A DNA stretch of 32,317 bases from assembly GCA_902500745.1 (NCBI GenBank), contig CABVRS010000020.1, positions 1-32,317 on the forward strand, written 5' to 3'. The notes under the pieces were generated by a model. That model saw nothing but the letters and a program-made list of their open reading frames with translations. It had not been told where the DNA came from and ran no database searches. Numbering within the stretch: position 1 is the first letter of the stretch; each line of letters opens with the position of its first letter. Shown here piece after piece: positions 8,371-23,615 of this stretch. Both the position numbers and the translations under genes were made by a program. Source of the DNA: an uncultured Nitrospira sp. GTDB taxonomy: Bacteria; Nitrospirota; Nitrospiria; Nitrospirales; Nitrospiraceae.

Positions 8371-9657
8371 CTACTGCTCCGTGACACCGGCTTCAAACAC
8401 GACCCGGCCGCCGACGATGGTGACGGTCACTCGCCCTTTGACTTTCCATCCCGCGAACGGTGTATTGCGGCTCTTGGACCGAAACTTCGACGGATCCACT
8501 TCCCATTGTTCATATTGATCCACGATCACCACATCGGCATCTGCACCGACGGCAAGTGTCCCTTTGTTGAGTCCGAACGCCGCTGCCGGTGCAGACGTCA
8601 GTTTTTGCACGGCTTGTTCCAGCGACAGCACGCCTTCTTCCACCAGTCCCAATGTCAACGGGAGCGCCGTTTCCAGCCCGACGATTCCGAACGGAGCTTC
8701 GGTAAAGTCTTGCTGCTTCTCCTGCGTCGCATGGGGCGCATGGTCGGTCGCAATCACATCGATCGTCCCATCTCGCAATCCTTCCTTGATCGCGTGAACA
8801 TCGGTCCACGTGCGCAACGGAGGGTTCATCTTGGCGTGCGTATTGTATCCGCGCACCAACTCTTCCGTGAGCATGAAGTGGTGTGGACAGGCTTCCGCCG
8901 TTACCTGAATCCCACGACCTTTGGCTTCACGGACCATTCGAACAGACCCAGCCGTGCTGATATGTGCCAGGTGGAGCCGGGCTCCGGTCAACTCAGAGAG
9001 CGAAAGATTGCGCGCGACCATGACATCCTCCGCCGCCGCGGGAATACCCGGCAATCCAAGTTCAGTCGAGATCAATCCTTCGTTCATACAGCCGCCTTCA
9101 GCCAGATGCAGATCTTCACAATGATCGACAACCGCGAGATCAAATGCCAACGCATACTCCATCGCTCGCCGCATGACCAGACTGTTCATGACGGGCTTTC
9201 CATCGTCGGAGATCGCTACGCAGCCGGACCGTCGCAAGTCACCGATCTCCGCTAACTCCTTCCCTTCTGACCCCTTCGTAATGGCGCCGATCGGCAAAAC
9301 GTTCGCAAGCCCAGCCAATCGAGAACGCTCCAGCATAAACTCGGTGACCGCTTGATTGTCATTCACCGGATTTGTGTTCGGCATGCAACAGACCGTCGTA
9401 AATCCTCCCGCAACGGCTGCGGCACTGCCGCTCTGGATGGTCTCTTTGTACTCGAATCCCGGCTCACGAAAGTGGACATGCAAGTCGACAAACCCCGGCA
9501 TGACAAGTTTCCCACTCGCGTGAATGGTCCGAGCTTCGACCGGTGCGGAAAGATTCGGCCCTATCGCGGAGATTTTTCCGTTATCAATCAGCACATCGAC
9601 TGTCCCGACAAATCGGCCTGGATCAATGACACGACCACCCTTAATCAGAATCGACAC
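8371..9657 (-). CDS. pyrC: dihydroorotase (class I, PyrC type)
   Basis: The 428-residue zinc amidohydrolase interconverts carbamoyl-aspartate and dihydroorotate, the third pyrimidine step. Metal and active-site positions are visible: H60 and H62 in DLHVHFREPG, D152 in ISDDG, H179 in VDHCED, H232 in AHISTAGS and D305 in ATDHAPH. The length and spacing fit the class I enzyme, which in some bacteria works in complex with aspartate transcarbamoylase, made here from the neighbouring pyrB. The start is GTG 9657, with GAGGG six nt upstream. It follows pyrB after a 119-nt spacer, the longest gap within the string. Confidence 0.97.
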   Translation of the reverse strand: MSILIKGGRVIDPGRFVGTVDVLIDNGKISAIGPNLSAPVEARTIHASGKLVMPGFVDLHVHFREPGFEYKETIQSGSAAAVAGGFTTVCCMPNTNPVNDNQAVTEFMLERSRLAGLANVLPIGAITKGSEGKELAEIGDLRRSGCVAISDDGKPVMNSLVMRRAMEYALAFDLAVVDHCEDLHLAEGGCMNEGLISTELGLPGIPAAAEDVMVARNLSLSELTGARLHLAHISTAGSVRMVREAKGRGIQVTAEACPHHFMLTEELVRGYNTHAKMNPPLRTWTDVHAIKEGLRDGTIDVIATDHAPHATQEKQQDFTEAPFGIVGLETALPLTLGLVEEGVLSLEQAVQKLTSAPAAAFGLNKGTLAVGADADVVIVDQYEQWEVDPSKFRSKSRNTPFAGWKVKGRVTVTIVGGRVVFEAGVTEQ

Positions 9658-9702
9658 GATACGCCCTCTCTAAAATTTGGCAGAAGTTTGTTGATTTGGA
9701 TG

Positions 9703-9776
9703 ATCTGTTGAGCAACTCACTGTATTCACGCTTGGCTCATCATTCCGTCACTCGACAAATCGTCAGATCAACAGAT
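9703..9776. repeat. imperfect inverted repeat in the pyrB-pyrC spacer
   Basis: ATCTGTTGA at 9703-9711 is mirrored by TCAACAGAT at 9768-9776, directly after the pyrB stop. An alternative seven-base pairing (TGATCTG at 9701-9707 with CAGATCA at 9764-9770) uses the same bases. The loop would be about 56 nt and no U-tract follows, so it is not a classical terminator. It could be an mRNA processing or stability structure, or chance. Confidence 0.3.
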
Positions 9777-10700
9777 TCACGAATTCGCTCCGGACATGAG
9801 ATATAGAATTCCCATCCTCACCGCAACGCCGTTGGCCACTTGGTCGAGAATGACCGAGGACAGGCTATCGGCCACCTCCGGCGCAATTTCGACCCCTCGA
9901 TTGATCGGCCCCGGATGCATGACGATGACTCCGGTGTCCGCCAGCCGCACTCGATCAGCGGTCAAGCCGTAGAGCCGCGAATATTCCCGTATGGTCGGGA
10001 ACAGCGCGCGTCCCTGCCGCTCCAATTGCAGCCGAAGCATCATGATGACGTTCACGTCGCGCAGGCCTTCGTCCATATGGTGGTACACCTTGGGGCCAAG
10101 CTTTTCCACACCGCAGGGCATCATCGTGGGTGGCCCGACCAGACGCACTTCGGCACCCAGCTTGACGAGCGCATAAATGTTCGACCGAGCAACTCGACTA
10201 TGCGACACATCACCAACGATAGCCACACGCAAGCCCTTAAAACTCATCCCTCGCTGACGGATCGTATACAGGTCCAACAATGCCTGTGTGGGGTGCTCAT
10301 GCCATCCGTCGCCGGCATTGATGACCGACGACTTGACCCCGTTTGCAAGCGTTTCGGCAGCACCCGCGGACGAGTGGCGCAACACGATAATGTCGGCTTG
10401 CATGGCTTCGATGTTCCGGGCCGTGTCGAGTAACGTCTCTCCCTTCACCACACTGCTGGAGGACGGCGCAAAGTTAATCACGTCGGCACTGAGTCGTTTG
10501 GCCGCCAACTCAAAGGACGTGCGAGTTCTCGTGCTCGGCTCAAAGAACAGATTCACGACCGTCTTGCCTCTGAGCGCCGGTACTTTCTTGATCTCTCGCC
10601 CTGTCACTTCCTTGAAGGAATCAGCCGTTTCCAGGATAAGCGTTATCTCATCCGCCGACAACGAGGCGAGGCTCAATAGATCTTTGCGCTTAAGGCTCAT
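9777..10700 (-). CDS. pyrB: aspartate carbamoyltransferase catalytic subunit
   Basis: The 307-residue enzyme joins carbamoyl phosphate and aspartate. The carbamoyl-phosphate loop [11 protein letters not shown] is at 52-62, the mobile-loop lysine K86 lies in VVKGETLLD, and the HPTQALLD signature is at 136-143. The length is normal for a catalytic chain. No pyrI regulatory-chain gene is present in the window, consistent with control by PyrR and with a possible complex with the class I dihydroorotase downstream. The ATG at 10700 has GGAGGA about 5 nt upstream and lies 13 nt after the pyrR stop. Confidence 0.98.
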
Positions 10701-10713
10701 AAGATCCTCCGCT

Positions 10714-11395
<682 letters not shown>

Positions 11396-11396
<1 letters not shown>

Positions 11397-11432
11397 AATG
11401 AGCTCCTTGCCCACCTCACTGGATGAGCATTA
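11396..11432 (-). promoter_or_regulatory. PyrR-binding RNA hairpin (PyrR box)
   Basis: The minus strand at 11423-11403 reads TCCAGTGAGG, three bases, then GCAAGGAG. It matches the conserved PyrR-binding loop of Bacillus pyr leaders (TCCAGAGAGG...GCAAGG) with one difference in the first block. Flanking TAATG/GCTC and GAGC/CATTA segments can pair with a two-base bulge to form the lower stem. The box contains the AAGGAG ribosome site of the leader ORF, and the hairpin's 3' foot reaches its ATG. Binding of PyrR-UMP would therefore hide that site. The match is direct; binding itself is inferred. Confidence 0.85.
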
Positions 11433-11443
11433 AAGGTTTCGTC

Positions 11444-11472
11444 ATCCTACTGAACCCCTTTCCCCCTGTCAA
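11444..11472 (-). promoter_or_regulatory. sigma-70 promoter of the pyr operon
   Basis: On the minus strand a perfect -35 TTGACA (11472-11467) is followed after 17 bases by TAGGAT (11449-11444), which differs from TATAAT at two positions. Transcription should start near 11437. That leaves just enough leader for the PyrR hairpin to begin within the first several bases of RNA. No other comparably good promoter was noticed in the string. Confidence 0.85.
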
Positions 11473-11618
11473 GCGCGGCGAGTCTTACGTGGCAGCCGGG
11501 CGGGATCCGATGAATCTCCCCTACGCACAGAGAAGGTCCTGAACACTTTTCCCATGGGGCGTTATGTTATAGGTGCTTTGTTGCCGATCTTGAGAGGCAC
11601 GATAAGACGATAGTTTCG

Positions 11619-12506
11619 ATGAATTACCCAAAACTCTCACGTTTCCAGATCTCGCTCCTCGGTGTACTCCTGACGATGTCGGGCTGCACACGAACTGCCC
11701 TCGTAGCCGCCAATCTTCCCACGCACTTCGACGCAACGGTTGTCGTGAAGGATCAGGTGTATGGGCCCGACCCTGCACAGAAACTCGATCTATATATCCC
11801 AGCCGATAAGACAAAAAAGCCGTTCGAGGTCGTGATCTTCTTTTATGGTGGGCGCTGGACCTACGGTGCCAAGAAAGACTATCGCTTTGTTGGATCAACC
11901 TTCGCAAACCGAGGCTTTCTGGCTGTTATTCCTGACTACAGAAAGTATCCCCAGGTACGGTTTCCAGCGTTCGTGGAAGACGGCGCCAAAGCTCTCTCCT
12001 GGGTCTACGATCACATTGCCGAGTTGCACGGCAATCCTACGCGGATCCATGTGGTGGGGCATTCCGCAGGGGCTCATATTGGTGCATTGGTAACTGCCGA
12101 TCCTCGATATCTTGCCGATGAGGGGAAAGATCGGTCGATCGTCATTCATGACTTCGCCGGACTCGCTGGCCCCTATGCCTTTACCCCTGACGAGCCGGAT
12201 CTGGAAGACATGTTCGGTCCGCCACAGAATTATCCGAACATGCAGGTCACCACGTTCATTGACGGCACACAACCGCCGATGTTGCTGCTCTACGGCAACA
12301 AAGACACAGCCGTGAAACTCGCCAATCTTGAAAAGCTGGAGCAACGTATCAAGCAACGAGGCGGCTGCGTACGAGCACGAATCTATTCGGACGCGAATCA
12401 TACCGACCTTGTCGGAGCACTGACATGGTGGAATCTCAAAGCTCTACCAGTCGTTGACGACATCATACGATTCTTTCTGTCCTGCAACCAGACGATCGCA
12501 GAGTGA
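11619..12506 (+). CDS. alpha/beta-hydrolase (esterase-like) lipoprotein
   Basis: The 295-residue protein has a signal sequence ending in TMSGC (lipid Cys 23), then an alpha/beta-hydrolase fold of the BD-FAE/carboxylesterase kind. The nucleophile S149 sits in GHSAG. D229 in YGNKDT and H261 in DANHTD are the likely rest of the triad. The usual HGGG oxyanion motif is replaced by FFYGGRW (74-80), where Tyr stands in the place of His. The substrate is unknown; short-chain esters are typical of relatives. It is divergent from the pyr operon, with the start about 150 nt from the pyr promoter. The ribosome site is weak. Confidence 0.85.
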   Translation: MNYPKLSRFQISLLGVLLTMSGCTRTALVAANLPTHFDATVVVKDQVYGPDPAQKLDLYIPADKTKKPFEVVIFFYGGRWTYGAKKDYRFVGSTFANRGFLAVIPDYRKYPQVRFPAFVEDGAKALSWVYDHIAELHGNPTRIHVVGHSAGAHIGALVTADPRYLADEGKDRSIVIHDFAGLAGPYAFTPDEPDLEDMFGPPQNYPNMQVTTFIDGTQPPMLLLYGNKDTAVKLANLEKLEQRIKQRGGCVRARIYSDANHTDLVGALTWWNLKALPVVDDIIRFFLSCNQTIAE

Positions 12507-12560
12507 GATGTTCGTCAACGTTGGTTATGACCTGGATATGAAAGGAGAGCGCTCCCTCGA

Positions 12561-13784
12561 CTATTCCGGTGCCGTGAGGGCATCTTGTGTGACATGGCCG
12601 GTTTGTGATTTCTCCACAAGATTGTGCTGAATTTCTTTGGCGATAACGAACGCCAGTTGGTCAGTAGACAACGCGCCCATCGGCAGTGGCTTTATCTCAC
12701 TATAAAATGGATCGTCAGGCACAGCGGGCCGATGGAGATTAATCAGAATCGCCGCTGGTTGGATCAGCTTTCCAGGATCCCCTACCAATACAGCCTTCTC
12801 TGCCGACAACACCCTGGTTCTGGTCGCCCAATCACGCTGGTCGATCTTCACAAACGCCACGTTCCAGATGTTTCCGTTTAAAAGGTTCGTCACAGCAAGC
12901 GGCAGGTAATTCAGAAAAAAGGGATCCCGCACGATTTTCTGCAATGCTTCCCGAACCCGAAGATCGTAAAACTTCGTCGCAGAATCGGGCTGACTCGGCT
13001 GAAGCAACGCCGTGCCGCCGACCTCGTAGTAGGACTGGCCCTCCAAACTCCGCTGGTCATCCACCGTCCGCAGGTACGTCTCAAAAAGTTGTTGAAGCAC
13101 CCGCACGCGCTCCTCGCTGGAGAGCGATCGAATGTCCCTGTCGGTTCGAATATCGGTATGTCGGAGGTCTCGCTGGGAGGAGACGGCCTTGGGCTTATGA
13201 CCAGTCTCCGCTTTGCTGACCACCCATTGGAACTCTCCCGCCAGCACCGATGCGAACTGCTCAGCCTGTCCTATGTATCCTTTCTCTTTCATTAATGACG
13301 CACTGATCAACCTGACCCGACCAGAGTCTACTGTTCGCACCACAAGAAAAGGGAACGTCTTCCCTTCGTGATTGTGTACGCTCTGTTCAATGATCACGCG
13401 CTCGAGCATTCCCTTGCTCACCGCGTCATCGAACCGCGGAAAGTCCTGTCGATGCTGACTCAAATAGGAGAAGGTACTGATCACTGTCTGAAGAACAGCG
13501 TCAGACTGAGGTTCATCGAGATTCCCGGCAGCTACCCCTTCTGTCTCCCGAGCGACAAACACTCGAAACGAGAGCCCTGGAATCTCATGGCCTAACCCTG
13601 AATGATGATGAAACGCTATCCCGGACCCTCCACTAGGACCCTCTTCTGCCGCATGGGCCTCGGCAGTGAAGCAAGCCAGGATAACAACAAACGACAAGAC
13701 CAGTCGTCTATTCCTGACCCACGTGCCAATGCCAACTCTCGCAGCCGGCCTCGTTTGGTCAACCAGGTGGTGACGCACCTTCAT
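12561..13784 (-). CDS. exported protein of unknown function
   Basis: The 407-residue product (from ATG 13784; a GTG at 13799 is also possible) has a basic start, a hydrophobic stretch (RRLVLSFVVILACFTAEAHA) and a probable signal peptidase I site after AHA, so it is probably periplasmic. I do not recognise the mature part. It has a His-rich FHHHSG shortly after the signal and, near the C-terminus, LAFVIAKEIQHNLVEK. The latter looks like the helix of an HEXXH zinc peptidase with Lys in place of the first His. No good Shine-Dalgarno is seen for either start. It converges with the hydrolase gene upstream. Confidence 0.8.
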   Translation of the reverse strand: MKVRHHLVDQTRPAARVGIGTWVRNRRLVLSFVVILACFTAEAHAAEEGPSGGSGIAFHHHSGLGHEIPGLSFRVFVARETEGVAAGNLDEPQSDAVLQTVISTFSYLSQHRQDFPRFDDAVSKGMLERVIIEQSVHNHEGKTFPFLVVRTVDSGRVRLISASLMKEKGYIGQAEQFASVLAGEFQWVVSKAETGHKPKAVSSQRDLRHTDIRTDRDIRSLSSEERVRVLQQLFETYLRTVDDQRSLEGQSYYEVGGTALLQPSQPDSATKFYDLRVREALQKIVRDPFFLNYLPLAVTNLLNGNIWNVAFVKIDQRDWATRTRVLSAEKAVLVGDPGKLIQPAAILINLHRPAVPDDPFYSEIKPLPMGALSTDQLAFVIAKEIQHNLVEKSQTGHVTQDALTAPE

Positions 13785-13799
13785 CCCCGAATTACCCAC

Positions 13800-14157
13800 A
13801 TTGCAATACGCTACTGCTCACCGCTCGCACTGTCAACGCATGGTGGTGGCCAGGCTAAAGATTATGACCAGGTCGTATCCAAAACTACCGACTTAAGCTT
13901 CGTAAAATAGTGCGTAGTACTCTTGTCTCGACCAACTGCACTCTGAACCCTACAGAGGCATCCAGATATGTCCAACGAAATGACCACCTCTATCCCGCAT
14001 GAACACCTACCGACGATCTCTTGGCGAGTCATAACATATTGAAAGTAGATCGTTTAATAAGTCGCAATTCGTGAAACTTGATAGACCGATGCCCTGGCAC
14101 CCCATTTGCTCGTATTTCAATGTGGCCAGTCCATGCCAGTCAACAAAGGAGGGTGTC
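13800..14157. other. 358-nt divergent intergenic region with no recognised element
   Basis: The stretch between the exported protein and the small plus-strand gene is relatively AT-rich in its right half. It must contain promoters for both directions, but no hexamer pair with proper spacing stood out. No RNA gene, repeat or coding frame could be supported. The only clear signal is the AAAGGAGGG ribosome site at its right end. Confidence 0.5.
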
Positions 14158-14601
14158 ATGGACGCGACAACTCATACCGTGACATTCCGTATTGTCTGGT
14201 GCCGACGGCAGCGGGCAAGCGCACGTACCAACGCTGAGCTAGAAGCCTGGCTCGCTGAGGAAGCGGGCCTCCGAGATGCGGTTCTCCATCGGGATCACGT
14301 CAATAAGTATCGGCTTCGTTCATCCGAGTTATTCGAACGCTACTTGTTAGGGTTTCAAGATGCAAAAGCGCTCATGCGTGCGGCGAGGGCAACTCGCTTT
14401 AGTCAATCTGTCGGTGACAGAACACCACCTCACATCGGTTCCAACTGGAGAACTATCAGCACTGCCCTCCCTTCTCGTACACACGACCGTCGATCTCTGT
14501 CGGCACTGCCTGATGGCAACCCTCGGCGGACCAATTCCATCTTTCGTCATTTACCTAGGGGAAATCGTTCTGGGAACCTGAAGGCGGGTAAGACTATCTA
14601 G
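14158..14601 (+). CDS. hypothetical protein, possibly frameshifted
   Basis: ATG 14158 has a strong AAAGGAGGG about 5 nt upstream, so a gene almost certainly starts here. The first 70-80 residues (MDATTHTVTFRIVWCRRQR, then NAELEAWLAEEAGL) look protein-like. After about 14400 this frame becomes rich in Arg, Ser, Thr and Pro in the manner of a wrong frame. The neighbouring frame is open from 14351 to a TGA at 14581 and reads more naturally, for example LSALPSLLVHTTVDL and ATLGGPIPSFVIYLGEIVLG. A frameshift between about 14351 and 14450 would join them. Either version overlaps the 3' end of the convergent YqgE gene. I do not recognise the family. Confidence 0.5.
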   Translation: MDATTHTVTFRIVWCRRQRASARTNAELEAWLAEEAGLRDAVLHRDHVNKYRLRSSELFERYLLGFQDAKALMRAARATRFSQSVGDRTPPHIGSNWRTISTALPSRTHDRRSLSALPDGNPRRTNSIFRHLPRGNRSGNLKAGKTI

Positions 14602-15168
14602 CCACAGCGTGGCAGGATCCTTGTCGAAGATGTTGAAGGTATCCGACGGTAAGACGCCCCACGATCCTTGGCGCATTTCAGAATCGAGTTGCCCAGGTGC
14701 CCATCCGGCAAAGCCGGCAAATGCGCGGAAGCCTTCGGTCTGCTTGGGTTGGGCGATGAGACGTTCCAGGATTCTGGGCGTCCCAACATAGATTCCATCG
14801 ACAATCCGCCGGGCATCGGGATACGGTTCCTTCAGGTGGAATAACAAGACCATCTGCGTTTGCCCGACCGGTCCACCGGCAAACAAACGATGGCTCGTTC
14901 TCTTCAGCACAGGAAGGTCAGGCAACACGTCGGATAACGACACATTCGTAGGTCGATTGAGAATGAGACCAACGGTGCCATCGTTTCCGTGTTCGAGAAT
15001 CAGCAGGACCGTTTGTTCAAAATTTGGATCATCGAGAGAGGGGCTCGCAACGAGCAGTACGCCTCGTTCAACTGACGATGGCAAAAATTCTTGCTGCCCA
15101 AGGGCAGGAATGGCAAATAGTAGAACCACGACCCCCGCGAGGAAGGCCTTAGCAAAGCAGCCCTGCAA
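14551..15168 (-). CDS. YqgE/AlgH family protein (UPF0301), apparently exported
   Basis: About 205 residues. The body matches the YqgE/AlgH (DUF179) family: RGVLLVASPSLDDPNFEQTV, then GLILNRPT, FAGGPV, and AFAGFAGWAPGQLDSE. Its biochemical role is not established. Unlike the usual cytoplasmic members, it begins with a signal-like stretch (AFLAGVVVLLFAIPALG before QQ). The start is uncertain. TTG 15168 has no ribosome site. A GAGGTG lies near 15190, where a GTG in another frame begins MKSCLLSL, so the true start may lie upstream or a small frameshift may exist near the 5' end. Confidence 0.8.
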   Translation of the reverse strand: MQGCFAKAFLAGVVVLLFAIPALGQQEFLPSSVERGVLLVASPSLDDPNFEQTVLLILEHGNDGTVGLILNRPTNVSLSDVLPDLPVLKRTSHRLFAGGPVGQTQMVLLFHLKEPYPDARRIVDGIYVGTPRILERLIAQPKQTEGFRAFAGFAGWAPGQLDSEMRQGSWGVLPSDTFNIFDKDPATLWLDSLTRLQVPRTISPR

Positions 15169-15380
15169 AGCGACAAAAGGCAGGATTTCACCTCAATTCA
15201 ACTGCTAACAGATATCGTTTCTCCCTCGTAAAAGCAACAGGTTCCCGAGATGGAATAGGATGCGACCACCGTTGATCCAGAGTGGCAATCTGAGACACGT
15301 TCTGTGCTAGACTGCCGATAGTTGTGACCCGTGAATGACACAGTCTTGTTGGCTGGATTAATCGCAAAGGAGACGGCATC

Positions 15381-15983
15381 ATGAAGGCCTGTTGGCGAGA
15401 GCTCGTCGGGATGGCTATGATTGCTTTGTGTACCCTATCGGGATGCATCGATCCGCCGACCTCGCCCTATGTAGATGTACGAGACACAGTGACGAGAATC
15501 GATGAACGACGACCGGTGGCGGAGCAAGGGACCGCCGAAGAGCAGTACAACCTTGGCGTACAGTACGAGAATGCCCTGCCACGAGACCATCGAGAAGCCG
15601 TCCGTTGGTATCGTATGGCTGCGATGCAGCGGCACGCAGGCGCTTTCTACAGACTCTGTGCTCTCTCGGACATGGGTCGAGGCATACCTCAAGACTATCA
15701 AGAAGCGCTCCGGTGGTGCCGGCTTGCCGCAGACCATCGACATGGGGCCGCCATGTTTCTGGTCGCAACGTACTATGAAAAGGCCCGAGGGGTTCCGAAG
15801 GACGTGGTTCAAGCCTACCAGTGGTATAACCTGGCGGCATCCAATGGGCATGAAGCCGGCGCGAAATGGCGCGATCGTCTCGCCCGTGATATGACACCGA
15901 CTCAAATTGCGCAAGCCCAATTTCTTGCGCGGAACTGGAAGCCGAAAACCGAAGAGCCACCACACGAGAACGAGGCTCCTTGA
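15381..15983 (+). CDS. Sel1-repeat (SLR) lipoprotein
   Basis: The 200-residue protein has a signal ending in TLSGC (C22) and about three Sel1-like repeats: AEEQYNLGVQYENAL, GAFYRLCALSDMGRGI and AAMFLVATYYEKARGV, each followed by an A-W/Y-(Y/C)-R/N-LAA helix. A C-terminal tail carries MTPTQIAQAQ. Such repeats form alpha solenoids that bind other proteins. The ATG follows AAGGAG by about 8 nt. A similar gene follows 208 nt downstream; the two look like diverged paralogues. Confidence 0.88.
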   Translation: MKACWRELVGMAMIALCTLSGCIDPPTSPYVDVRDTVTRIDERRPVAEQGTAEEQYNLGVQYENALPRDHREAVRWYRMAAMQRHAGAFYRLCALSDMGRGIPQDYQEALRWCRLAADHRHGAAMFLVATYYEKARGVPKDVVQAYQWYNLAASNGHEAGAKWRDRLARDMTPTQIAQAQFLARNWKPKTEEPPHENEAP

Positions 15984-20461: not shown

Positions 20462-20753
20462 TCGGCGCTACCGTATGCATGACACCACAACAGCCGCGTA
20501 CCCTTTCGCACAGCGGATATTCTCATACCTCTCCAGATGCGTCACGTGTTTTACGCTTTCCAAGCGTCTCCGTTCCGATCATCACATTAAGGATTGCCCC
20601 TGCCTCTATCGGGAGGTAGCCGAATGCGGCCCGTATCCTGTTCATCGTGCCGCGCAACAGCGACACTTTGAAAATGGGTATGCTGGTGATGTGTGTATCG
20701 ACGACTACAACACAACGGTCGGCAATGGGCAGGCGGTACGAGCACGCTTGGTG

Positions 20754-20830
<77 letters not shown>

Positions 20831-20864
20831 ACAAGACCAAGTCGAAACAGAAGGGCTGATTGTC

Positions 20865-21968
20865 TTACAACAGAGGGGCAAAAGGCAACCCATGAGCGTC
20901 CGCTACTCCACGACACGTTACGTTCCCATCTTTCAGATTGACCCCTTTTGCCAAACCTGGGTCCGATTGAACCGCTCGATCGACGCCATCCGATGCAAGT
21001 CGGAGCAGATACGGCATAGTCGCATTAGTGAGCGCATAGGTAGATGTCCGAGGAACGATACCAGGCATATTGGCCACACCATAGTGAAGGACCCCATCTA
21101 CGACATACACAGGATTGGAATGAGTTGTCGGCCGAGTCGTTTCTACACAACCACCCTGATCCACCGAAACATCGACGATGACTGAACCAAGCTTCATTCG
21201 TGATACCAGCGCCCGCGAGACAAGCTTCGGCGCCTTCATTCCTGGAACCAGCACGGCTCCGATGACAAGATCGGCCGAGGACACAGTCTCTTCAATGACG
21301 GAAGCACTCACAGCCCTGGTGATGATGCGCCCCTGGTAGTGATCGTCCAGTAGGCGAAGTCGTTCAACATCCAGATTGACGACAGTGACCCGTGCCCCCA
21401 AACCCACGGCCATACGAACAGCCGAGGAGCCCACCACTCCAGCGCCAAGCACAACCACATGGCCTGGCTCAACCCCGGGAACTCCTCCCAGCAATACCCC
21501 ACGGCCTCCATTGACCTTTTCCAGGTATTGCGCACCAATTTGCACAGACATTCGTCCAGCTATTTCACTCATTGGCTTGAGCATCGGAAGACTACCGTCT
21601 CTAGCTTCCGTCGTCTCATAGGCAATAGCCGTCACTTTGCTGTTCAAAAGCTCCCTGGTCACATCAGGCAACGCGGCAAGATGTAGATAGGTAAATAAGA
21701 CTTGCCCGGGTCGAAAGAGCGGACATTCTACAAGTAACGGTTCCTTCACTTTCACGATCATCTCGGCTCGAGCAAACACGTCACTTTTCGAACGCGCGAT
21801 CGTGGCCCCTCCCTTGCAATACTCGTCATCGCTAAATCCACTACCCTCGCCCGCGGAGGATTCAACCCAAACCTCATGCCCACAGTGGCACAACGTCGCC
21901 GTAGCCTCCGGTGTGAGACTGACGCGATATTCGTGATCCTTGATTTCTTTTGGTATACCGATAATCAT
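20865..21968 (-). CDS. ald: alanine dehydrogenase
   Basis: The 367-residue enzyme interconverts L-alanine and pyruvate with ammonia and NAD. The start [20 protein letters not shown] is typical. R15, K75 and H96 fall at the positions of the substrate and catalytic residues of the mycobacterial enzyme as I recall them. The NAD-binding loop [14 protein letters not shown] lies in the middle. ATG 21968 has AGGAG about 8 nt upstream, and a longer in-frame start at 21992 looks unneeded. It is transcribed away from the ferredoxin operon. Confidence 0.97.
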
Positions 21969-22082: not shown

Positions 22083-22112
22083 TGGACAGTCTTGAAATTT
22101 CTATTGTATGAT
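22083..22112 (+). promoter_or_regulatory. sigma-70 promoter of the four-gene ferredoxin operon
   Basis: TGGACA (22083-22088), an 18-base spacer and TATGAT (22107-22112), each one base off consensus. RNA would start near 22119, about 25 nt before the first ATG, which has a GGAGGT ribosome site. Confidence 0.6.
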
Positions 22113-22143
22113 ATGTCTTCAGCCGTTCTTCATGGAGGTGGGT

Positions 22144-22518
22144 ATGGACTCTTTGAAAGAGACGTGTCACGCGTGCAGAGCCTCCGGTGGCCCACTCGCA
22201 AGATTATCGTTGGGGAAAGACTTTTTTGGCCGCCCCTACGACCGTCTCTCAGATCAAAACCCGCAATGGTATTGTGCTTCCTGCTCCATGCATAAGAACG
22301 TACAAAGAGACTTTCGCGACATCCACGCCGAATTCGACAAACTTCGAGCCGGTCAGGGCTCTGAACTTTCACAGGGTGATAATTTTCAACGCGCATCCTT
22401 GCGGCTACAAGAAATCCTGACCATCTTGAGCGCACCCCAACAGCCATCGCCGTTCTTACAGCGCCCAGACGTCGTACGCCTGATGGAACAGCTTACGACG
22501 TGTACCGTGCCGGTCTAA
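22144..22518 (+). CDS. hypothetical protein with a CxxC...CxxC zinc-ribbon-like N-terminus
   Basis: The 124-residue protein carries CHAC (C8, C11) and CASC (C44, C47), spaced as in a small zinc ribbon. The segment between them includes GKDFFGRPYDR. A helical C-terminal half (EFDKLRAG, RASLRLQEILTIL, VVRLMEQLTT) suggests a binding or dimerisation part. The ATG at 22144 follows GGAGGT closely, while an upstream frame start at 22108 has no ribosome site. It is first in an operon with two ferredoxin-like genes. I do not recognise the family. Confidence 0.75.
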   Translation: MDSLKETCHACRASGGPLARLSLGKDFFGRPYDRLSDQNPQWYCASCSMHKNVQRDFRDIHAEFDKLRAGQGSELSQGDNFQRASLRLQEILTILSAPQQPSPFLQRPDVVRLMEQLTTCTVPV

Positions 22519-22529
22519 CGGATTCCCCA

Positions 22530-22883
22530 ATGCCGGCATTTCAACGACATATCTTTATCTGCACCAACCAGCGCCCACAGGATGATCCACGCGGTTGTTG
22601 TGCAAAACTTGGGGCGGAGAAACTTCACGCGCACTTCAAAAGTGAAACTAAGCGACTTAATCTCAAGGACATTGTCCGTGCTAATAAGGCCGGCTGCCTC
22701 GACCATTGTGACCTCGGCCCCAGCGTGGTGGTCTATCCTGAGGGAGTGTGGTACTGGGTCGGCACTGAAGCCGATGTCACAGAGATCATGGAACGGCATG
22801 TCGTGCAAGGTGAAATCGTCACTCGGTTACTTATGCCTGAGCACCCAGTCCCAGAACAATTAGTGCCACTCAAGAGGTCATAG
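22530..22883 (+). CDS. thioredoxin-like [2Fe-2S] ferredoxin
   Basis: The 117-residue protein starts MPAFQRHIFICTNQRP. Four cysteines, C11, C23 (or C24), C56 and C60 in CLDHCDLGP, are spaced as in the Shethna/Aquifex Fd4 type of thioredoxin-fold [2Fe-2S] proteins. VVVYPEGVWY and VTEIMERHV complete the fold signature. It is a cytoplasmic one-electron carrier or cluster protein; the partner is unknown. The ATG is 11 nt after the previous stop with no good ribosome site, so re-initiation is likely. Confidence 0.92.
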   Translation: MPAFQRHIFICTNQRPQDDPRGCCAKLGAEKLHAHFKSETKRLNLKDIVRANKAGCLDHCDLGPSVVVYPEGVWYWVGTEADVTEIMERHVVQGEIVTRLLMPEHPVPEQLVPLKRS

Positions 22884-22902
22884 CGCTCTCCACGACACGC
22901 CC

Positions 22903-23316
22903 ATGCCGACCGAAGACAAATGGAAGGCCAACATGCAAAAGGTGGCCTTCGCCCAACAGTTTCCCGGCTTGTTATTGAACTGGCACGCCTGCGAGGGCAA
23001 GACAATCCGCGCCGTCCTTCCACTCACAGGGAAACCGGGCGCGATGGTGATCGTATTCACCGATGCGTCCTTTACGATCGTTCCTCCCCTTACCCCTGAG
23101 CCCTGGGCCATCGGACAGGCGCTTGTCGATGCTCGCCCTGAGCTTGAATCTGCACACCGCACTGCCTACGAGGAATACGACCGATTGGCACAGAGGGACA
23201 GAGAGGCGCTACGAAGCGCGCGATTGGAAAAGATTTTGGGTGCGATTCATAATAACCTGGAACAGATTCCCGAGCTTAAAGACCGGCTCACAGCACTCGT
23301 ACAGGAATGGAAATGA
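22903..23316 (+). CDS. hypothetical protein
   Basis: The 137-residue protein has a mixed N-terminal half (GLLLNWHACEGKTIRAVLPL, PGAMVIVFTDASFTIVPPL) that could be a small beta-rich domain. A charged helical C-terminal half follows (YEEYDRLAQRDREALRSA, then EQIPELKDRLTALVQEW). No motif or family is recognised. It sits 19 nt after the [2Fe-2S] ferredoxin and overlaps the next ferredoxin gene by ATGA, so it is expressed with them and may be their partner. Confidence 0.75.
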   Translation: MPTEDKWKANMQKVAFAQQFPGLLLNWHACEGKTIRAVLPLTGKPGAMVIVFTDASFTIVPPLTPEPWAIGQALVDARPELESAHRTAYEEYDRLAQRDREALRSARLEKILGAIHNNLEQIPELKDRLTALVQEWK

Positions 23317-23615
23317 GCAGCCTCCCACAAAAGAACATGTTCGAGATCTTCTCGCAAGGCCTCTTTGAAGGAGTCAAACCCATGTTAGTCATTCGTGATC
23401 ACCTCGTCCGTCATCCCGACCGCTGTACACATCAGGCCGTCTGCGTGCCGATTTGCCCGACGAGCGCCTGGCTCTCGACACCTCCTTACAAGTTTGATCC
23501 ATCACGCTGCCTGGAAAGCTGCCGGCTCTGCCTCGATGCCTGTCCATCACAGGCGATCTATGCCGTCTTCAAGAAGGGGGACAAGTTATTGGAGCCGCAA
23601 AAGAAAACCGGGTAG
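23313..23615 (+). CDS. ferredoxin-like iron-sulfur protein with atypical cysteine pattern
   Basis: The 100-residue protein has two cluster motifs near its C-terminus. The first is C38-x5-C44-x3-C48-P, where the usual second Cys (residue 41) is Gln. The second is C66-x3-C70-x2-C73-x3-C77-P, with one extra residue after the first Cys. Seven cysteines instead of eight suggest one [4Fe-4S] and one [3Fe-4S] or a labile cluster. Residues 1-35 are an extra N-terminal part (FEIFSQGLFEGVKPMLVIRD). The ATG at 23313 overlaps the previous stop (ATGA) with AGGA upstream; an ATG two codons earlier is also possible. Confidence 0.85.
   Translation: MSSLPQKNMFEIFSQGLFEGVKPMLVIRDHLVRHPDRCTHQAVCVPICPTSAWLSTPPYKFDPSRCLESCRLCLDACPSQAIYAVFKKGDKLLEPQKKTG

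What the first reader, a model, noticed from the sequence alone, without database searches (positions are those of the whole stretch)
22083..23615. Four-gene redox operon joining two unusual ferredoxins with two proteins of unknown family
A promoter followed by a CxxC/CxxC protein, a thioredoxin-fold [2Fe-2S] ferredoxin, an unknown protein and a seven-Cys ferredoxin, with short gaps and an ATGA overlap, looks like a dedicated electron-transfer or cluster-handling unit. It lacks any recognisable oxidoreductase, so the partner enzyme is elsewhere or one of the unknown proteins is new.
Basis: partly seen in the sequence, partly recalled or inferred. Interest (0 to 1): 0.55.

Follow-up and report, generated by a model that had tools for sequence, protein, structure and literature searches.

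The report
Nitrospira ferredoxin pair with orphan partners
Nitrite-oxidising Nitrospira bacteria carry a tightly conserved cluster of two small iron-sulfur electron carriers and two proteins of unknown family, which gene order in related bacteria suggests may power enzymes that insert sulfur into RNA or cofactors.

Summary
The window is from a Nitrospira-type genome. Four same-strand genes, P1 (22144), P2 (22530), P3 (22903) and P4 (start corrected to 23313), lie in unbroken order in 45 of 47 sampled genomes of the window's family. P1 is a predicted four-Cys zinc-ribbon protein; P3 has a confident model without a clear solved relative; neither passes a Pfam or NCBIfam cut-off. P2 is a thioredoxin-like [2Fe-2S] ferredoxin with FeSI's four ligand cysteines. 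P4 is a seven-Cys ferredoxin found only in the order as far as tested; its spacing (CX5CX3CPX16CX3CX2CX3CP) fits neither published dicluster motif tested. P2+P4 is the constant core; P1 is missing in one sister family, P3 from the cluster in another. In sister orders, 13 of 29 P2 orthologues sit directly upstream of the radical-SAM methylthiotransferases MtaB and MiaB, one directly downstream of lipoyl synthase; none of nine paralogue loci does. Best reading: electron supply for Fe-S enzymes, sulfur-inserting radical-SAM enzymes being the best-supported clients (inferred, 0.4). Main rival: carrier for the reductive-TCA 2-oxoacid:ferredoxin oxidoreductases. No client is shown experimentally.

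The parts
22083..22112 (+). sigma-70-like promoter candidate (TGGACA-18-TATGAT)
   Evidence: 10 of 12 matches, but 3 sites found against 1.3 expected in the region, so suggestive only
22144..22518 (+). P1: 124-aa protein with C8xxC11 ... C44xxC47 zinc-ribbon-like N-terminal half and three helices; no family above cut-off
   Evidence: weak zinc-finger hits only; AF2 pLDDT 85.7; four Cys in 81 of 81 distinct sequences
22530..22883 (+). P2: thioredoxin-like [2Fe-2S] ferredoxin (Shethna I / Aquifex 1f37 kind); predicted ligands C11, C24, C56, C60
   Evidence: (1f37 E 2.6e-24; 5abr E 1.6e-18); same ligand numbers in FeSI (PMC8561814)
22903..23316 (+). P3: 137-aa protein of no known family, three-stranded sheet plus long C-terminal helices; no conserved Cys
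   Evidence: AF2 pLDDT 92.0; no PDB match E<=0.001
23313..23615 (+). P4: seven-Cys ferredoxin CX5CX3CPX16CX3CX2CX3CP; start overlaps the P3 stop (ATGA)
   Evidence: start codon 23313 from 103 of 104 matched sites

Best explanation
P2 and P4 are a pair of small iron-sulfur electron carriers, made from one coupled gene cluster, that supply low-potential electrons to soluble Fe-S enzymes encoded elsewhere. The best-supported clients are sulfur-inserting radical-SAM enzymes: the tRNA methylthiotransferases MtaB and MiaB, possibly lipoyl synthase. P2 would carry one [2Fe-2S] cluster; P4 probably a [3Fe-4S] cluster (C40, C46, C79; the usual second Cys of that motif is Gln, Asn or Lys at position 43) and a [4Fe-4S] cluster (C50, C68, C72, C75), and would pass electrons to P2 or to the client. 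P3 is proposed as a docking or specificity partner of P2, P1 as a structural zinc protein that tunes the unit. Shown: gene order, conservation, candidate ligand residues, grouping of P2 with the sister-order sequences. Inferred: cluster types, electron transfer, clients, roles of P1 and P3.
For: P2 orthologues (same side of a 99/98-supported split from the paralogues) in sister orders lie directly upstream of MtaB-MiaB in 13 of 29 genomes from three families, gaps 7-104 bp measured mostly to the first aligned MtaB residue; a rhodanese gene is upstream in 13 of 13 and MoeA in 12 of 13. MtaB and MiaB pass curated NCBIfam cut-offs in the five proteins scanned. In one further genome P2 follows lipA by 3 bp. 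Control: 0 of 9 paralogue loci show MtaB, MiaB or LipA in the stretch fetched. P3 sits between rhodanese and P2 in 5 of 5 f10 genomes read, next to P2 in 4 of 7 f9 genomes, and next to P2 in the window's order. The MiaB of the P2-linked kind (55-61% identical) is kept, beside MtaB, in f1 and f3 genomes. A [2Fe-2S] ferredoxin is described as donor to LipA, and as believed to serve MiaB, in the apicoplast (PMC8844926 passages); a ferredoxin activates Thermotoga MiaB (reported in PMC10470005 passages).
Against: In the window's own order the MtaB-MiaB pair stands without P2 beside it in the loci read, so the link is by orthology only. The f2 genome searched (G051, 87% complete) has P1-P2-P4 but no MiaB of the P2-linked kind (best 32% identity). 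The 13 genomes may reflect one inherited arrangement, not independent events. Seven of 29 P2 orthologues sit instead by a histone-deacetylase-family gene and, where the contig reaches (6 of 7), TldD/TldE; three have MoeA and TldD within a few kb with a hydrolase beside P2; five show none of the probed genes. P4 has no link to any radical-SAM gene. P3 in family f20 pairs with a PF02552 gene, which points elsewhere.
Confidence: 0.4

Rival explanations
1. P2/P4 are carriers for the reductive TCA cycle: they take electrons from a ferredoxin-reducing complex I and hand them to the pyruvate and 2-oxoglutarate:ferredoxin oxidoreductases.
For: Nitrospira needs reduced ferredoxin for these enzymes (PMC6606698 passages; PMC3578206 passages on Nitrospina and Nitrospira). 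In four f20 loci from three genera P3 lies just downstream, same strand, of a PF02552 gene, and a PF02552 gene lies just upstream of alpha-, beta- and gamma-subunit-like oxidoreductase genes in the window's own genome (only gamma passes a curated cut-off).
Against: PF02552 is in 20 of 20 genomes searched; nine of these (G227, G188, G211, G205, G171, G077, G068, G095, G102) had no P4 at E<=1e-10, and two of the nine show a POR alpha gene beside PF02552 (L279 of G227, L272 of G068). So these enzymes do not need P4. Short-frame PF12838 matches other than P4 exist in the seven genomes searched (not checked one by one). No oxidoreductase of this kind was seen beside the cluster in the loci read.
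Confidence: 0.25
2. The set is an iron-sulfur or redox sensing/handling unit: P1 (zinc ribbon) and P3 are regulators or cluster-delivery factors, and the ferredoxins report or buffer the redox state.
For: P1 has four invariant Cys with weak zinc-finger matches; rhodanese and MoeA neighbours of P2 in sister orders fit sulfur/cofactor handling; P1 lies directly upstream of fructose-bisphosphatase in four of four f20 loci read.
Against: No DNA-binding or scaffold family matched above cut-off; P3 has no conserved Cys.
Confidence: 0.15
3. General housekeeping ferredoxins without a dedicated client; the neighbours in sister orders are incidental survivors of an ancient gene block.
For: P2 orthologues have at least four different neighbourhoods; the alanine dehydrogenase and squalene/phytoene synthase flanks in Nitrospirales have no obvious link; some near-complete order members lack P2.
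Against: P4 mean column identity 92% in 18 rows, invariant order in 45 of 47 genomes and overlapping starts suggest selection on the set.
Confidence: 0.2

Closest known systems
Shethna protein I / Aquifex aeolicus thioredoxin-like [2Fe-2S] ferredoxin (PDB 5abr, 1f37; NCBIfam NF041613, NF041612)
   Same: P2: family by sequence, four candidate ligand Cys at the same numbers as FeSI, CX12CX31CX3C
   Different: Scores 79 bits against cut-offs of 195 and 150; falls on the other side of the tree from the 1f37 sequence, whose own placement on a long branch is uncertain; not in a nif cluster
7Fe (FdxA-type) ferredoxins
   Same: P4: seven Cys, two CP motifs, one Cys of the first motif lacking; ferredoxin I chains such as 1ff2 among the PDB hits (organism recalled)
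   Different: CX3C instead of CX2C in the second motif and 16 instead of at least 17 residues between; 0 of 63 full P4 sequences match the published 7Fe motif (motif from PMC11430716 passages)
Ferredoxin-dependent MiaB/LipA systems (Thermotoga; apicoplast)
   Same: Proposed role: small ferredoxin as donor to sulfur-inserting radical-SAM enzymes
   Different: Other ferredoxin settings; the link here rests on gene order in sister orders
FeSI-containing stretch of the Azotobacter nif cluster
   Same: A thioredoxin-like [2Fe-2S] ferredoxin predicted to be cotranscribed with a 4Fe-4S ferredoxin-like gene and unknown genes (PMC8561814)
   Different: No nif genes in the window flanks read; P1 and P3 were not compared with the Azotobacter unknown genes

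Membership tests
Thioredoxin-like [2Fe-2S] ferredoxins (P2) | sequence relationship to solved members over the whole domain | tested here: met
   1f37 E 2.6e-24 over profile 6-104; 5abr E 1.6e-18
Thioredoxin-like [2Fe-2S] ferredoxins (P2) | four ligand cysteines | tested here: met
   73 of 73 tree rows have CX12CX30-33CX3C; same numbers as FeSI
NCBIfam FeSI / Clostridium [2Fe-2S] equivalogs (P2) | curated equivalog score cut-off | tested here: not met
   79 against 195 bits, 78.7 against 150 bits
Thioredoxin-like [2Fe-2S] ferredoxins (P2) | a [2Fe-2S] cluster | not testable with these tools
   needs EPR or UV-visible spectroscopy
7Fe ferredoxin (P4) | published motif CX3-10CX3CPX17-40CX2CX2CX3CP | tested here: not met
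   0 of 63 full sequences
2[4Fe-4S] ferredoxin (P4) | published eight-Cys motif CX2-7CX2-4CX2-3CX14-42CX1-2CX2-8CX3C | tested here: not met
   0 of 63; position 43 is Q 46, N 15, K 2 of 63. The Alv motif was not run
Fer4 superfamily (P4) | Pfam gathering score | tested here: met
   PF12838 37.5 against 27 bits; PF12837 31.3 against 25. In whole-genome scans P4 was listed only in G213, and weakly, or not listed
Any Pfam or NCBIfam family (P1) | curated cut-off | tested here: not met
   no family; 18 members scanned against Pfam, weak zinc-finger hits in 1 member each
Any Pfam or NCBIfam family (P3) | curated cut-off | tested here: not met
   Med26 helical bundle weak in 17 of 18 members, best E 2.3e-5; the window protein scores 16.3 against 20.6 bits (other members' scores against the cut-off not shown)
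Known solved fold (P3) | significant fold match | tested here: inconclusive
   none at E<=0.001; best Z 4.5, rmsd 6.1, 81 aligned
Known solved fold (P1) | significant fold match | tested here: inconclusive
   none at E<=0.001; best Z 6.7, rmsd 2.5, 68 aligned, model residues 48-123 (helical half)
Ferredoxin donor of MtaB/MiaB/LipA | electron transfer to the enzyme | not testable with these tools
   only gene order tested

The most novel reading that the evidence does not exclude
A previously undescribed, order-wide electron-delivery module of nitrite oxidisers: a thioredoxin-like [2Fe-2S] ferredoxin moved out of an ancestral MoeA-rhodanese-P3-P2-MtaB-MiaB operon and coupled by overlapping genes to a new spacing class of seven-Cys ferredoxin, with P3, a protein of no known family, as a new kind of specificity partner for sulfur-inserting radical-SAM enzymes.
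Probability: 0.22. Interest if true: 0.6.

Novelty: new variant of a known kind. Interest (0 to 1): 0.42.

Why it matters
How Nitrospira routes low-potential electrons is an open question; published work discusses a 2M-type complex I as a possible ferredoxin reducer (passages). A highly conserved ferredoxin pair found in most sampled members of the order gives named, small, expressible proteins to test. If the radical-SAM link holds, it assigns a donor to tRNA methylthiotransferases in a phylum for which my paper searches listed none, and gives a function to a group of thioredoxin-like ferredoxins. P3 and P1 are conserved proteins without any family and would gain a context.

Tried and rejected
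FeSII-type conformational protection: considered because of the name Shethna; [quoted passage not shown]

P1-P4 as defence proteins: no PADLOC match. P3 on plasmids: no match. P3 as a Med26/TFIIS bundle: weak, window protein below cut-off. Ribosomal L29 and ATPase matches to P1/P3 are helix look-alikes at poor scores. The fold tables list no clear relative; this is not evidence of a new fold.

P4 as the main ferredoxin of the reductive TCA cycle: kept as a rival, not adopted, because POR-type genes occur in genomes without P4.

Not done: absence of flavodoxin, location of MoeA/rhodanese in Nitrospirales, P4 in family f4 and in the whole class sample, P3 elsewhere in f2 genomes, expression data (supplements not available).

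Rows dropped before counts: in the P4 count one row (L150, run of unknown bases) was left out of 64, and L056 (P4 cut short beside the synthase gene) is the single full row failing the motif. G239, whose P2 fell on the paralogue side of the tree, was left out of the 29; G220, G240, G250 and G261 of the 34 sister-order genomes had no group-A hit to read. Each sister-order genome in the 29 contributes one locus; G244 had two such matches (L179, L189) and counts once.

Paper searches behind novelty statements.

Full report
What is there. The window lies in a Nitrospira-type genome: the 40 named loci found with P3 are nearly all records titled Nitrospira, Nitrospiraceae, Nitrospirae or Nitrospirota. 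Between an alanine dehydrogenase gene (minus strand) and a squalene/phytoene synthase gene (minus strand; families) stand four plus-strand genes P1-P4. In the 40 named loci (L032-L071) the alanine dehydrogenase is upstream in 40, P2 and P3 in 40, P1 in 39 (not L070; fragmented in L069), P4 in 39 (L071 ends first; cut short in L056), the synthase in 36. A phylum sample of 198 genomes holds 47 of the window's family (own genome included): 45 carry P1-P2-P3-P4 in unbroken order on one strand, one (G213) P1-P2-P4, and one (G162) only a partial P4 beside a run of unknown bases. So this is a conserved operon-like unit, not chance. It is not universal: in a class sample 18 of 246 genomes, 16 of them in the order, gave no P2 match at E<=1e-25; most are incomplete, but four of these order members are at least 90% complete. 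In the 35 same-genus genomes, P1 is missing in G008 and only a 22-residue match with a stop in G003.

Start of P4. The codon at window 23313 is GTG (80) or ATG (23) in 103 of 104 matched sites in the fetched loci, some genomes being counted in more than one locus. P4 therefore most likely starts there and overlaps the stop of P3 (ATGA or GTGA), which suggests coupled translation. The promoter-like site at 22083 is well placed but weak as evidence: 3 sites found, 1.3 expected.

The proteins. P2 is a thioredoxin-like [2Fe-2S] ferredoxin: profile match to Aquifex 1f37 at E 2.6e-24 and to 5abr at 1.6e-18, and Cys 11, 24, 56, 60 at the same numbers as the ligands of Azotobacter FeSI (PMC8561814, first part of the text read). 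It fails the NCBIfam equivalog cut-offs of that group. P4 has seven Cys, CX5CX3CPX16CX3CX2CX3CP, in 62 of 63 full distinct sequences; 0 of 63 fit the published motifs for 7Fe or 2[4Fe-4S] ferredoxins (motifs from passages of PMC11430716). Position 43, where a normal first cluster motif has its second Cys, is Gln 46, Asn 15 or Lys 2 of 63. By analogy with known dicluster ferredoxins (established knowledge, recalled) this predicts a [3Fe-4S] and a [4Fe-4S] cluster. Mean column identity of P4 is 92% in 18 rows. P1 has C8xxC11 and C44xxC47 in 81 of 81 distinct sequences reaching into distant families; its only Pfam hits are weak zinc-finger ones. P3 is modelled with pLDDT 92.0, shows no conserved Cys and no significant solved relative.

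How far it spreads. P4 at E<=1e-10 occurs in 56 of 198 phylum genomes, all in the window's family (47) and sister family f3 (9); family f2 has it in the four loci read. P2 (with paralogues, E<=1e-10) occurs in 139, P3 and P1 (E<=0.001) in 67 each of 198. f3: P2-P3-P4 in 8 of 9, P2-P4 in 1. f2: P1-P2-P4, no P3 between P2 and P4, in 4 of 4 loci read; P1 itself was found in 5 of 8 f2 genomes. So P2+P4 is the constant pair within the order, and P1 and P3 come and go. f-numbers are the tool's anonymous families.

Where P2 sits elsewhere. I read the surroundings of the best P2 match in 30 of 34 sister-order genomes of the class; 29 of these fall with the window's P2 in a tree whose two halves split at 99/98 (few columns, many inner forks unresolved, some long branches). 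Of the 29: 13 (families f7, f10, f38) have P2 followed on the same strand by MtaB and MiaB, gaps 7-104 bp measured mostly to the first aligned MtaB residue, with rhodanese upstream in 13 and MoeA in 12; in the five f10 genomes P3 lies between rhodanese and P2. One (f8) has lipA, 3 bp, P2. Seven (f9) have a histone-deacetylase-family gene, P2, P3 in four of the seven, and TldD/TldE in the six whose contig reaches that far (two of the deacetylases checked by Pfam). Three (f6) have MoeA and TldD within a few kb. Five (f5, f11, f37) show none of the probed genes; in f11 a methyltransferase and a DUF3641 radical-SAM gene follow at about 280 bp. MtaB, MiaB, LipA and TldD assignments pass NCBIfam cut-offs in the proteins scanned. 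As a control, nine loci of the P2 paralogue group carry none of MtaB, MiaB, LipA in the stretches fetched. In the six Nitrospirales loci read, the MtaB-MiaB pair exists but without P2; its MiaB is 55-61% identical to the P2-linked kind in the f1 and f3 genomes searched, while the f2 genome G051 shows only 32%, which counts against a MiaB-specific role there.

P1 and P3 outside. In distant family f20 (which I take for Leptospirillum-like; recalled, not from a call) P1 lies directly upstream of fructose-bisphosphatase, with a histone-deacetylase-family gene nearby, in four of four loci read (L140, L141, L142, L144). There P3 follows a PF02552 gene on the same strand in four loci from three genera (L134, L137, L138, L139) and not in the two loci of a fourth genus (L135, L136), with nadA near it in all six. 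A PF02552 gene stands just before 2-oxoacid:ferredoxin oxidoreductase-like genes in the window's own genome. This is the strongest evidence for the rival reading. Against it, PF02552 with a POR alpha gene also occurs in genomes without P4 (L279 of G227, L272 of G068).

Mechanism. The cluster encodes two carriers side by side. P4 plausibly accepts electrons from a reductase and P2 hands them to a client. The company of P2 in sister orders - rhodanese, MtaB, MiaB, once LipA - consists of sulfur-inserting enzymes and a sulfur-handling gene, and such radical-SAM enzymes need an electron donor; a [2Fe-2S] ferredoxin is described as donor to LipA in apicoplasts and is believed to serve MiaB (PMC8844926 passages), and a ferredoxin activates Thermotoga MiaB (reported in PMC10470005 passages). 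I therefore commit to electron supply with sulfur-inserting radical-SAM enzymes as first client, at 0.4; the reductive TCA oxidoreductases are next at 0.25. Everything past gene order and candidate ligand residues is inference.

Novelty. P2 is a known kind; P4 is a new spacing variant of the seven-Cys kind; P1 and P3 are unnamed families. My paper searches showed no report of this cluster in their listings; most subscription papers are not held.

Noticed in passing
G000:C93:8079-8366 (L147) and G196 (L148): Nitrospira has a second thioredoxin-like ferredoxin, of the paralogue group, followed on the same strand by a 170-aa molybdopterin-binding-family gene (PF00994 in L147).
   Followed up: partly
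L128, L167-L171, L173 and L140-L142, L144: A histone-deacetylase-family gene sits beside P2 in family f9 and near P1 in family f20, a hint of an old shared neighbourhood.
   Followed up: partly
L134, L137, L138, L139: A solo PF02552 gene (CO dehydrogenase beta / ACS epsilon-like) pairs with P3; in G068 it is apart from another PF02552 gene that stands in the 2-oxoacid oxidoreductase run (L272).
   Followed up: partly
window 20754-20830: tRNA-Pro (cgg) on the minus strand; ORFs 20475-21185 and 20693-20941 over it look spurious.
   Followed up: no
L150 (G162:C17): Partial P4 next to a run of unknown bases beside an adenine phosphoribosyltransferase-like gene (by eye); probably an assembly gap.
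   Followed up: no
L055 (named Nitrospira sp. isolate RCA) 8405-15559: The synthase gene lies about 4-6 kb from P4 and appears as two matches, suggesting an insertion between the cluster and its usual flank.
   Followed up: no
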